From positions 124,001 through 188,000 of the forward strand of contig JAJZAJ010000001.1 in assembly GCA_021799475.1 (NCBI GenBank): 64,000 bases of DNA, written 5' to 3'. A program made the translations under genes and the position numbers. The DNA comes from Microcaldota archaeon. Its GTDB lineage: Archaea > Micrarchaeota > Micrarchaeia > Micrarchaeales > Micrarchaeaceae. Positions 30,558 through 57,433 of this stretch are shown here, piece by piece (positions within the stretch are counted from its first letter, which is position 1; every line of letters begins with the position of its first letter). The notes below the pieces were generated by a model. It had not been told where the DNA came from, made no database searches, and saw only the letters and a list, made by a program, of their open reading frames with translations.

Positions 30558-30640
30558 CCCCGAACCGGTGTATTCCTGGCTTATTTTTTATCAGATGGCG
30601 CTCTTCGGATTTTGACGTTTTTGCTGCGATGAATCTAATA

Positions 30641-30726
30641 TGCAGGGGGTGAGATTCGAACTCACGAAGGCGCTAAGCCACGGGATCTTAAGTCCTGCGC
30701 ATTTGACCAGGCTCTGCCACCCCTGC
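30641..30726 (-). tRNA. tRNA-Leu (anticodon TAA)
   Basis: Minus-strand cloverleaf: acceptor GCAGGGG pairs with CCCCTGC, discriminator A; anticodon stem-loop GGA-CTTAAGA-TCC gives TAA; T-arm GTGAGTTCGAATCTCAC. A long variable arm marks it as class II leucine tRNA. CCA is not encoded. Confidence 0.95.
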
Positions 30727-30850
30727 ACCGGATGATATTATGCGCAACTCCCTTTTAATATATGTTTCTGGATTGCCGGCAGCATAAGCAAACAGGAAAC
30801 CGGCGCAGCATTTATGACAGAAGAAAAGGGAAGCTATATTGCAATAGCGT

Positions 30851-31059
30851 TCACTCTATACATATTTGCATTTCTCCTTTGTCGACCCCTGTTATAAATG
30901 ATGAAAGGATCCCGCGGAGCTGTTCGTGCTGGTCCTTCGTAATTATCGATGCCCCAACCCTTAGTATGGTTGAGATGGATATAGCATCTTTGCCTTCTAT
31001 CGCAATTTTGGCTAGCTGTGATGGAAGCGGGCCAGGTATCTTTTCTCCTTCCCACTCTG
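30851..31059 (-). pseudogene. Small gene split by the TnpB element (3' part)
   Basis: Open frame directly downstream of the TnpB right end: EWEGEKIPGPLPSQLAKIAI near the start, then ISTILRVGASIITKDQHEQL, ending ICIE and a TGA. The matching first 16 bases, ATGAGTGATAACAGGC, lie beyond the left end at 32366-32381. Joining them gives a continuous 70-residue frame beginning MSDNRPEWEGE. So the TnpB element probably landed in codon 6 of a small unknown gene that followed the PAC2 gene. Function unknown. Confidence 0.6.
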
Positions 31060-32365
31060 TGACACCCTCTCCTAACTAAACTTTGATGCAGAGTATGTTT
31101 TCAGTTCCTCGACAACCGCCTCCCTTTGAGGTCTTACACTGTCTCCCTGAACGTGACTTCGGGAGTGTCCCTCCCTAGCTTTTGCAAGTATATTTATTGA
31201 TGCGTTTATGTCCCTGTCCTCAGTGAGACCGCATCCTTCGCAGAAGTAAATCCTTTTCGACAGCGGCATGTTCTGGAGATTGCCGCAATTGCTGCATGTC
31301 TTTGATGTCTCTCTTGGGTCTACTTCTATAACCTTCATACCAGCACTTTCAGCCTTGTATGAGAGGTATTGGAAAAACCTGTTCCAAGAAGCATAATTTA
31401 TCGACTTTGCAAGATGATGGTTCTTCATCATGTTTTGAATTTGCAGTTTTTCAACTGCGAATGAAGTGTATCCTGAGTTTATGAGTTGGTCTGTTATCTT
31501 ATGAAGATAATCATTTGCCTGGTTATTTGCGATTTCGTATTCCCTTGTCAATTTGTCTTTTGCAATCTGCCTTCTTCTTGAACCTTTCTTCCTTCTTGCA
31601 ACTATTCTTTGCCATCTTGCGATATGTTTTTCGGCGTTCTTCCTAAAGTTTGGTTTGGTTATTTTTGACCCATCGGAAAGGACTGCAAATGTCTTCAGAC
31701 CCATATCGATGCCGACTGGGTTCGTATCCTTGACCTCTGGAATCCTGATGTCCTTTATTGCGGTGAATATGGCATAATATTTCCCATCCTCCCTCTTTAT
31801 CGTCATCGTCTTTATTTTCCCTTCTATCTGCCTATGAAGTTCTATTTTCATAGTCCCTATCTTTGAAACCCTCAATCTGCCTTTTTCTATACTAAATGAA
31901 CCGTTGTTCTCTATGTGCATTACTGAATTGTATTTATCCCTGGATTTGAAACGTGGGAATCCGACTTTCACCTTTCCTCCTGACTTCTTCTGTTTGCACC
32001 TTCTGAAAAAGTTTTGGTATGTTCTTAACATCCTGTTCCGTATATCTACACGGACATGGGAATAGAGGTCATAATACCTTTCATCGTCTTTTAGGATTTC
32101 CTGCATGAATATATTTATTGTTCTTTGCGATATTTTTGATTGTGGCTTTTTCTTGTGCGCCTCTATAGTCTTCTCAAGAAGTTTGTTGTATAGCTGTTGA
32201 GAAAGAATAAGCGTATTATTTATCGCATCCTGCCTCTTTTCGTCAGGATACAATCTAAACTTATACGCTCTAATGCAGCCCATATCTTTATTTAGTTTCT
32301 TCATCTTTTTACACCTTTCTAACGCCCTTGTCCCCTATCTGAATGATAGGGGTTTGCGGGCTATT
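31060..32365 (-). mobile_element. IS200/IS605-type TnpB-only element
   Basis: Minus-strand element bounded by AATAGC (left end, first base 32365) and GTGTCA (right end, last base 31060). The bounds come from comparison with the 405-bp relative at 57029-57433, which shares both ends. The left end carries a hairpin CCCCTATC...GATAGGGG (32332-32352). Only tnpB is present; there is no tnpA transposase, so movement would need help in trans. Confidence 0.75.
31072..32304 (-). CDS. tnpB: TnpB, RNA-guided nuclease of IS605-type element
   Basis: 410-residue TnpB, the ancestor-type relative of Cas12. N-terminal helical domain (OrfB_IS605 HTH), then a RuvC core with all three acids: D200 in VGIDMGLKTFA, E285 in FAVEKLQIQNM and D365 in TEDRDINASINIL. 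A zinc finger (CSNC...CEGC, about 337-358) lies between the last two. Nothing is missing, so it should be able to cut. Its 3' end and right end would encode the omega RNA scaffold, with the guide read from flanking DNA after GTGTCA. Confidence 0.94.
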   Translation of the reverse strand: MKKLNKDMGCIRAYKFRLYPDEKRQDAINNTLILSQQLYNKLLEKTIEAHKKKPQSKISQRTINIFMQEILKDDERYYDLYSHVRVDIRNRMLRTYQNFFRRCKQKKSGGKVKVGFPRFKSRDKYNSVMHIENNGSFSIEKGRLRVSKIGTMKIELHRQIEGKIKTMTIKREDGKYYAIFTAIKDIRIPEVKDTNPVGIDMGLKTFAVLSDGSKITKPNFRKNAEKHIARWQRIVARRKKGSRRRQIAKDKLTREYEIANNQANDYLHKITDQLINSGYTSFAVEKLQIQNMMKNHHLAKSINYASWNRFFQYLSYKAESAGMKVIEVDPRETSKTCSNCGNLQNMPLSKRIYFCEGCGLTEDRDINASINILAKAREGHSRSHVQGDSVRPQREAVVEELKTYSASKFS

Positions 32366-32409
32366 GCCTGTTATCACTCATTAGTTTTACTCTTATCCCT
32401 ATTTCTTTT

Positions 32410-33153
32410 TCATGCATACATTGAAGGGCCTGCGGCATCTACGGCTTTTTTATGGGCATCCTGCACCTGCCTGTTCCTCTGTAAGAGTTCTCTTATCTTC
32501 TCCTCTACTTGTTTAGCTTCCTTGTCCAATTCCGTTATGTCGATGTTCAGACTCAGGAGCTTGTTAACAAAAACCATTGCGGTCTCTGCATATTTCGGAT
32601 CAAGAATGCTTGGATCCACAGGCACCAGTATGTTTATATCTGGAATCGCATCAAGCGTAGCGCTCATCAATATCAGAGCGCTTGTTCCAGTTGCAACCCC
32701 TTCAACAACTGGTTTCATTCCGGCTTTCTGCGCTTCTTTTCTTGCGGAGTCGGTTGATGCCATGGAGAAGACCTCGTTCTTTCCAGATGAGGCAATCTGG
32801 TTAGGTATCCCTGCTATTGATACTATTTTGCCGATTCCCGATTCCCTGACGAAGTCATAGACAGATTTGGAAAGCTCCGATGTCGCATTTATAGGTATTG
32901 CAAATTCTGCTAGTATTGCAAAGATCTTTGTTTTAGCATCTGAGTACATCCTTATAGGAGGCATTGGCTTATTTCCGTGTATAGCTATCAGTGGAGGAAA
33001 CATGCTGCTTTCTATATATCCTATGTACTCCATATCAAGCTTATCTATGAGATAGCTTATTGCCATCGGGCCGACCAGCCCTACGCCGGGAAATCCTTCT
33101 ATAAAAGTATATCCCTTGAGGGAGGATTTTTTCAGTAGCTTTACTTCTATCAT
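32410..33153 (-). CDS. PAC2-family protein (proteasome assembly chaperone-like)
   Basis: 247 residues from ATG 33153 (MIEVKLLKKSSLKG); the longer track start adds 17 unlikely residues. The PAC2 fold signature EGFPGVGLVGPMAISYLID opens the protein, followed by alternating strands and helices (ILVPVDPSILDPKYAETAM near the end) and a charged helical tail. Archaeal relatives are linked to proteasome assembly (PbaA/PbaB). A second PAC2 gene lies at 57.5-58.3 kb; two paralogues would fit a heteromeric chaperone. Confidence 0.85.
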   Translation of the reverse strand: MIEVKLLKKSSLKGYTFIEGFPGVGLVGPMAISYLIDKLDMEYIGYIESSMFPPLIAIHGNKPMPPIRMYSDAKTKIFAILAEFAIPINATSELSKSVYDFVRESGIGKIVSIAGIPNQIASSGKNEVFSMASTDSARKEAQKAGMKPVVEGVATGTSALILMSATLDAIPDINILVPVDPSILDPKYAETAMVFVNKLLSLNIDITELDKEAKQVEEKIRELLQRNRQVQDAHKKAVDAAGPSMYA

Positions 33154-33241
33154 GCAATCGGTAAACATTTGCTGCAAAACTATAAAAGCTTGTTTTCGGC
33201 GCAAAAAGCACCTATGCCTTAAATACTCTCGTAAAATCGAC

Positions 33242-33291: not shown

Positions 33292-33513
33292 ATGGCAGAA
33301 AGAATAGGGAGTGAGAAATTAGCGCGCGAGGATGGGTATTTGTACTTCCTCGGAAAGGACGGATACGTCTGGAGGACGCCAATGAAAACGAACAAGAGAG
33401 GCAGAAAGGCCAGAATAGGCTCTGAAAAGATACAGAGGGCCAAAGGCTACCTTTACTACCTCGATAAGGCAGGGTACGTTGCAAGGGCGAAGATGAACAG
33501 GAAAGGCAGATAA
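33292..33513 (+). CDS. Small basic protein with internal duplication
   Basis: 73 residues built of two copies of one unit: RIGSEKLAREDGYLYFLGKD and RIGSEKIQRAKGYLYYLDKA, each followed by GYV, a basic patch and a KxxxKGR-like end. About 35 residues per unit, no cysteines. The basic charge and size suggest a nucleic-acid-binding protein, but this is a guess. A strong T-rich tract follows at once. Confidence 0.75.
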   Translation: MAERIGSEKLAREDGYLYFLGKDGYVWRTPMKTNKRGRKARIGSEKIQRAKGYLYYLDKAGYVARAKMNRKGR

Positions 33514-57028: not shown

Positions 57029-57433
57029 TGACATCCTCTCCTATCTGAAAGATAGGAGGTTCCTCTTGCTCTTGACTCTGTGTCCGTCCTCATCTGTTAC
57101 CATCGGAGCGGGTTTCGGAACCTTTTTACTGGGTTCGGGGTCGCAGAGCATCCTTGCGTTGCCTCTTTGGAGGTATCAGTGCTCTCCTTGCATACATCCC
57201 TGTCTGTATGCAATCGGGATATACCCTTATTCCGCACCTTTTGGATGGGTGCGGGGACATTCCCTACTGTGGATTTCGTGCCACAGCGCATCTCATTTGG
57301 GCATATCGCACTCAATTCTGGATAGTCCTTTTCAGGGCGTATTCCAGATATATGCGAGACCAATATCATTATTTCACCAGCAAAATTTATATGCATTCAT
57401 CCCCTAACTGAAGATTAGGGACTTTCTGCTATT
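57029..57433 (-). mobile_element. 405-bp TnpB-less relative of the TnpB element
   Basis: Shares both ends with the tnpB element: left end AATAGC with hairpin CCCTAA...TTAGGG (57402-57420), right end TAGGAGAGGATGTCA, compared with TAGGAGAGGGTGTCA there, preceded by hairpin CTCCTATC...GATAGGAG (57038-57058). Internal minus-strand ORF (57097-57396, MHINFAGEIM...) contains MRCGTKSTVGNVPAPIQ and looks like the tail of another TnpB 3' region. So it is an internal deletion product, possibly keeping the omega RNA part. It sits 15 bp from the 3' end of tRNA-Gly. Confidence 0.7.

What the first reader, a model, noticed from the sequence alone, without database searches (positions are those of the whole stretch)
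30851..32381. TnpB element caught in a small gene, with ends and guide readable
The element ends (AATAGC at 32365, GTGTCA at 31060) are fixed by comparison with the 405-bp copy at 57 kb. Removing it joins ATGAGTGATAACAGGC to CAGAGTGGGAAGG in one frame, restoring a 70-residue gene after the PAC2 gene. TnpB keeps D200, E285, D365 and the zinc finger, so it may still cut DNA with an omega RNA whose guide would start CAGAGTGGG. There is no tnpA, so its spread must rely on another transposase.
Basis: partly seen in the sequence, partly recalled or inferred. Interest (0 to 1): 0.75.

Follow-up and report, generated by a model that had tools for sequence, protein, structure and literature searches.

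The report
Decayed TnpB-only insertion sequence in archaeon
This is a decayed copy of a common bacterial and archaeal jumping gene whose RNA-guided DNA-cutting protein still looks intact, but whose built-in guide-RNA scaffold is broken, so it most likely can neither move nor aim itself; it did not neatly split a small gene as first proposed.

Summary
The element is real: a 410-residue TnpB (31072-32304, minus) with D200, E285, D365 and a four-cysteine zinc finger, in an 814-kb micrarchaeal genome, with no tnpA beside it. Comparison with about 70 related elements changes three claims. (1) The left end is wrong by 5 nt. All 16 elements with the same left-end core carry TGAT[A/G] (14 TGATAA) just upstream, and across 30 left ends at different sites conservation stops there. 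So TGATAA (32376-32371) is the target motif and the element runs 32370-31060 (1311 nt), not 32365-31060. A relative interrupting a methyltransferase gene confirms this register. (2) With these ends the ATGAGTGATAAC frame no longer joins the downstream frame. That ORF is instead a 5'-truncated relative of a 128-135-codon gene in the same place (PAC2 - gene - tRNA-Leu) in three congeners. (3) The right end has lost about 31-37 nt: one arm of each of two covarying omega-RNA hairpins, intact in the relatives. The cis guide RNA, and probably the TnpA-recognised end, are therefore broken. Overall: an ordinary, decaying TnpB-only IS200/IS605 (IS1341-type) element, in a TnpB clade with its own TAM. 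The 57-kb copy belongs to another left-end subtype, so it cannot fix the ends.

The parts
32371..32376 (-). TGATAA, the target/transposon-adjacent motif left of the element
   Evidence: 16/16 elements with the same LE core have TGAT[AG] (14 TGATAA) 16-20 nt upstream of it; among 29 LE copies at different sites conservation falls to background just upstream of TGATAA
31060..32370 (-). the inserted element by family-supported ends (1311 nt; the register 32369-31059 gives the same empty site)
32320..32370 (-). left end with subterminal hairpin (CCCCTATC..GATAGGGG)
   Evidence: sequence; same layout in relatives
31072..32304 (-). tnpB, 410 aa, D200/E285/D365 and C337/C340/C355/C358; dN 0.115 and dS 1.36 against the closest relative
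31060..31115 (-). right end / 3' part of the omega-RNA, missing one arm of each of the two 3' hairpins (about 31-37 nt lost)
   Evidence: alignment A1, fold z-score 0.11 versus -2 to -4 in relatives, CM 28.7 bits versus 94 for the closest relative
31044..31059 (-). putative 16-nt guide position if the cis omega-RNA worked (starts at C31059 or A31058)
   Evidence: guide length by analogy with ISDra2 (PMC8612924)
30855..31058 (-). open frame ..EWEGEKIPGPLPSQ..QICIE, a 5'-truncated relative of the PAC2-linked gene of congeners
   Evidence: 27% identity over 61 aa with the G008 protein, alignment score above all 1000 shuffles, same neighbours
32410..33204 (-). PAC2-family gene upstream
   Evidence: PF09754, E=3e-38; 54-62% identical in the genus
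30640..30727 (-). tRNA-Leu (TAA) downstream
57029..57433 (-). 405-nt tnpB-less LE/RE relic of a different left-end subtype, right-end hairpin intact

Best explanation
A TnpB-only IS200/IS605-family (IS1341-type) insertion sequence that entered 3' of a TGATAA motif between a PAC2 gene and its neighbour, presumably moved in trans by a Y1 TnpA that this genome no longer encodes intact. It has since decayed: a deletion of about 31-37 nt in the right end removed one arm of each 3' hairpin of the omega-RNA scaffold. The TnpB protein is probably still foldable and catalytically competent, but it cannot make a standard guide RNA from its own locus, and the element end is probably not recognisable by TnpA. 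The neighbouring gene is a 5'-truncated relic, not a gene split cleanly by the insertion. Shown by sequence: the TnpB gene, target motif, end register, loss of hairpin arms, absence of an intact tnpA in the assembly. Inferred: mobilisation in trans, loss of function, order of events.
For: TnpB by Pfam, NCBIfam guided_TnpB (1e-81) and solved ISDra2 TnpB (E about 6e-53). TnpB tree: the 14 TGATAA left ends are one group (83% of bootstrap trees; 0 of 500 shuffles as low). TAM boundary over 30 sites. End register confirmed by a relative interrupting a methyltransferase: only TGATAA|C (or TGATAAN| with GTCAC) restores Methyltransf_25 across the junction; the register one base off gives no hit. RE ends GTCA-C in 59 of 62. 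Covarying 3' hairpins (88% pairs, covariation 0.368 versus 0.163 shuffled and at most 0.187 slid) broken in this copy alone among the 28 aligned. Only a tnpA fragment in the genome. A complete tnpA+tnpB relative with the same kind of right end exists.
Against: No empty site of this very locus was found; the nearest species held are only 54-62% identical at PAC2. The right-end deletion is seen in one assembly only and could be an assembly error. The genome is 95% complete, so an intact tnpA could lie in the missing part.
Confidence: 0.82

Rival explanations
1. One reading: a mobile TnpB element cleanly interrupting a 70-residue gene starting at ATGAGTGAT, with a working cis omega-RNA.
Against: That removal leaves 5 nt of LE in the gene and conflicts with the TAM conserved in 16/16 relatives; the family ends put ATG out of frame; homologues have about 50 more N-terminal residues and G007 has the same TAATGAGTGAT string upstream of its start codon, where ATG-AGT-GAT is followed by a stop; the 3' hairpins are broken.
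Confidence: 0.08
2. Split system: TnpB from this locus works with omega-RNAs supplied in trans by tnpB-less relics with intact right-end hairpins (C3:17 kb, C1:197 kb, window 57 kb).
For: Relics with intact RE hairpins exist in the genome, 68.1, 48.6 and 27.9 bits; the TnpB reading frame is intact; TnpB and omega-RNA supplied from separate plasmids work for ISDra2 (PMC8612924).
Against: No expression data; one relic keeps only a right-end tip; dN/dS mostly reflects history before the insertion.
Confidence: 0.1
3. The missing right-end arm is an assembly artefact and the element is intact and mobilisable in trans.
For: Single assembly; hairpins can collapse in assemblies.
Against: The lost stretch covers parts of two hairpins and is not a simple palindrome collapse; the left-end hairpin and the other right-end hairpins of the same genome are intact.
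Confidence: 0.08

Closest known systems
ISDra2 / IS608 (IS200/IS605 family)
   Same: RuvC-type TnpB with zinc finger, subterminal LE and RE hairpins, insertion 3' of a short motif without duplication (TTGAT, TTAC), omega-RNA from the tnpB 3' end plus RE, UUUA loop in the hairpin next to the guide (PMC8612924, PMC10097598)
   Different: Target motif TGATAA, RE ends GTCA/C, no tnpA in cis, stem-3-like and stem-4-like arms deleted in this copy
IS1341-type TnpB-only elements of archaea
   Same: tnpB without tnpA, LE/RE ends shared with IS605 elements, tnpB-less short derivatives
   Different: This copy has a deleted right end and belongs to a distinct TGATAA-TAM TnpB clade of Micrarchaeota-type genomes
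Micrarchaeal IS605 element of G053 (L039) with tnpA, passenger ORF and tnpB
   Same: 59% identical TnpB, same RE consensus
   Different: TAM TTTAAC, LE AACGTGAGCGGG, tnpA present

Membership tests
TnpB RNA-guided nucleases | OrfB_IS605 / TNB domains with RuvC D-E-D and zinc finger | tested here: met
TnpB RNA-guided nucleases | intact cis omega-RNA scaffold overlapping the 3' end of tnpB | tested here: not met
   one arm of each 3' hairpin deleted; this lowers the claim of cis function, not protein family membership
TnpB RNA-guided nucleases | RNA-guided DNA cleavage | not testable with these tools
   needs biochemistry
IS200/IS605 family | subterminal hairpins at both ends | tested here: inconclusive
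   LE hairpin present; RE hairpin present in relatives but broken here
IS200/IS605 family | insertion 3' of a fixed short motif, no target-site duplication | tested here: met
   TGATAA in this copy and in relatives; empty-site register from the relatives L033 and L093
IS200/IS605 family | Y1 (HUH) TnpA in the element | tested here: not met
   none in cis; only a fragment in the genome; IS1341-type members lack it by definition
IS607 family | serine recombinase TnpA | not tested
   no PF00239 search was run; the fixed TAM and subterminal hairpins argue for IS605
Cas12f / CRISPR effector | adjacent CRISPR array | tested here: not met
   no CRISPR-like repeat family in the window; NCBIfam Cas12f2 score far below its cut-off

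The most novel reading that the evidence does not exclude
A split system in which this TnpB, having lost its own omega-RNA, is kept and guided by omega-RNAs from scattered tnpB-less relics in the same small archaeal genome.
Probability: 0.07. Interest if true: 0.55.

Novelty: new member of a known kind. Interest (0 to 1): 0.3.

Why it matters
By itself it is a routine TnpB-only element. It is useful because the family comparison fixes the ends and target motif of a micrarchaeal TnpB clade (TGATAA instead of TTTAAC) that follows the TnpB phylogeny, giving a test case for how TnpB and its TAM change together, and because it shows a catalytically intact TnpB gene whose cis guide RNA has decayed.

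Tried and rejected
Using the 57-kb copy to fix the ends: rejected, its LE (GCAGAAAGTCCC..GGATGAATGCA) is a different subtype and the shared AATAGC lies inside the LE in relatives. Searching for the downstream gene in 100 relatives with the right-flank peptide: no hit at E<=0.001 apart from its own genome; it was found only through PAC2 synteny. Searching 149 relatives with the 128-aa homologue: three congeners match at E<1e-50, four weak partial hits, and no N-terminal half elsewhere in the own genome. One genome-contig scan with PAC2: one new locus, more distant. A methyltransferase empty site in the genus of G272: not found. A TnpA in cis in the TGATAA clade: none in 30 fetched loci.

Full report
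What is there. The minus strand of 31072-32304 encodes a 410-residue TnpB. It matches OrfB_IS605, Cas12f1-like_TNB and HTH_OrfB in Pfam, NCBIfam guided_TnpB at 1e-81 and the solved ISDra2 TnpB chains at about 6e-53. D200, E285 and D365 are invariant in all related proteins that cover them, and the zinc-finger cysteines are C337, C340, C355 and C358. The window lies in an 814-kb, 95%-complete genome whose family members are micrarchaeal in size (the one named relative is a Candidatus Micrarchaeota MAG). It is the only full-length TnpB of this type in the genome. No tnpA adjoins it; the only Y1 match in the genome is a fragment covering 54 of 121 model positions.

The ends. I compared the copy with related TnpB elements from the same family and phylum. 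In 59 of 62 related right ends the base after GTCA is C. The closest elements share the left-end core C[CT]GCAAAC, and 16 of 16 have TGAT[A/G] (14 have TGATAA) 16-20 nt upstream of it. In 30 left ends of this type at different sites, conservation falls to background immediately upstream of TGATAA (the loci were fetched with a query that began with TGATAA, so the motif itself is slightly favoured, but not the drop upstream of it). TGATAA is thus the target motif, equivalent to TTGAT in ISDra2 and TTAC in IS608 (PMC8612924). In the window it is 32376-32371, so the element starts at 32370 (or 32369), not at 32365. In a TnpB tree the 14 TGATAA-type elements are one group (83% of bootstrap trees, 0 of 500 shuffles as low), and the copy is sister to L029 from another species of the genus.

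Testing the register. In L093 the element interrupts the antisense strand of a methyltransferase. Only removal to TGATAA|C (or the equivalent TGATAAN| with GTCAC) gives a continuous protein that matches Methyltransf_25 across the junction; the register one base off gives no match. In L033 the element sits at the start of alanyl-tRNA synthetase (identified from its sequence), and the same two registers give a start MI-TNKESLRKEF, against MLDKESLRKEF in congeners with the uninterrupted gene. For the window copy both registers give the same empty site...CTAATGAGTGATAACAGAGTGGGAAGG..., with 1311 nt removed.

The host site. In three congeners (G007, G008, G009) the gene between PAC2 and tRNA-Leu encodes 128-135 residues, and its C-terminal part aligns with the window peptide (27% identity over 61 residues with G008; alignment score above all 1000 shuffles). 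About 50 N-terminal residues are missing in the window. G007 has the same TAATGAGTGAT string just before its start codon, and there ATG-AGT-GAT runs straight into a stop. The flank is therefore best read as a 5'-truncated gene. Whether truncation preceded, accompanied or followed the insertion is not resolved.

The broken right end. The 3' part of the omega-RNA in relatives has two hairpins. Both show covariation (88% of cells paired, covariation score 0.368 against 0.163 in shuffles and at most 0.187 in slid controls). The last one carries a TTTA loop, as does stem 4 of ISDra2, whose UUUA tetraloop joins the two halves of the natural single guide and which is bound by the WED domain (PMC10097598). 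The window copy lacks about 31-37 nt: the 3' arm of the first hairpin and the 5' arm of the last. Its fold has a z-score of 0.11 against -1.96 to -4.08 in five relatives, and the covariance model, built without this copy, scores it 28.7 bits against 94 for L029 (L029 is among the sequences the model was built from). The TnpB C-terminal tail altered by the deletion corresponds to a dispensable part of ISDra2 TnpB (PMC10097598). So the protein may still work, but its cis guide RNA probably does not, and TnpA recognition of the right end is probably lost.

Other copies. The model finds right-end relics at C3:17107-17197 (68.1 bits), C1:196784-196853 (48.6), the 57-kb copy (27.9) and a doubtful one at C3:428956 (21.6). 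The 57-kb copy has a left end of another subtype, so it cannot fix the ends of the 31-kb element. In the wider phylum, TGATAA-type left ends occur in 29 of 302 genomes. None of 30 fetched loci has tnpA in cis, and several are short LE-RE elements without tnpB. This group looks non-autonomous, so mobilisation in trans by a Y1 TnpA is the likely mechanism (inference).

Verdict. An ordinary, decaying TnpB-only IS200/IS605 element. The gene-splitting and cis-guide interpretations are not supported.

Noticed in passing
window 57029-57433 (-): 405-nt tnpB-less IS605-type relic between tRNA-Gly and a small gene, with both end hairpins; its left end is of a different subtype from the 31-kb element.
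   Followed up: partly
own genome C3:17107-17197, C1:196784-196853, C3:428956-429017 (L128, L129, L132): Further right-end (omega-RNA 3' hairpin) relics; the C1 one is a bare right-end tip directly behind TTTCTTAAC.
   Followed up: partly
own genome C3:369012-369176 (L116): Truncated Y1 TnpA relic behind an IS605-type left end (CTTCTGAAATCCCTTGCGTTTACGCATG).
   Followed up: partly
L029, L031, L092, L099, L107 right flanks: In the TGATAA clade 5-6 of 12 elements sit within 4 nt of an ORF's ATG, against 3 of 54 other elements (post hoc, p about 0.001-0.004).
   Followed up: partly
L039:720-2755: Complete IS605 element with tnpA, a small hydrophobic passenger ORF and tnpB; TAM TTTAAC.
   Followed up: no
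window 33292-33513 (+): Small ORF with two similar ~34-aa halves (RIGSEK..GYLYFLGKDGYV / RIGSEK..GYLYYLDKAGYV), no Pfam match.
   Followed up: no
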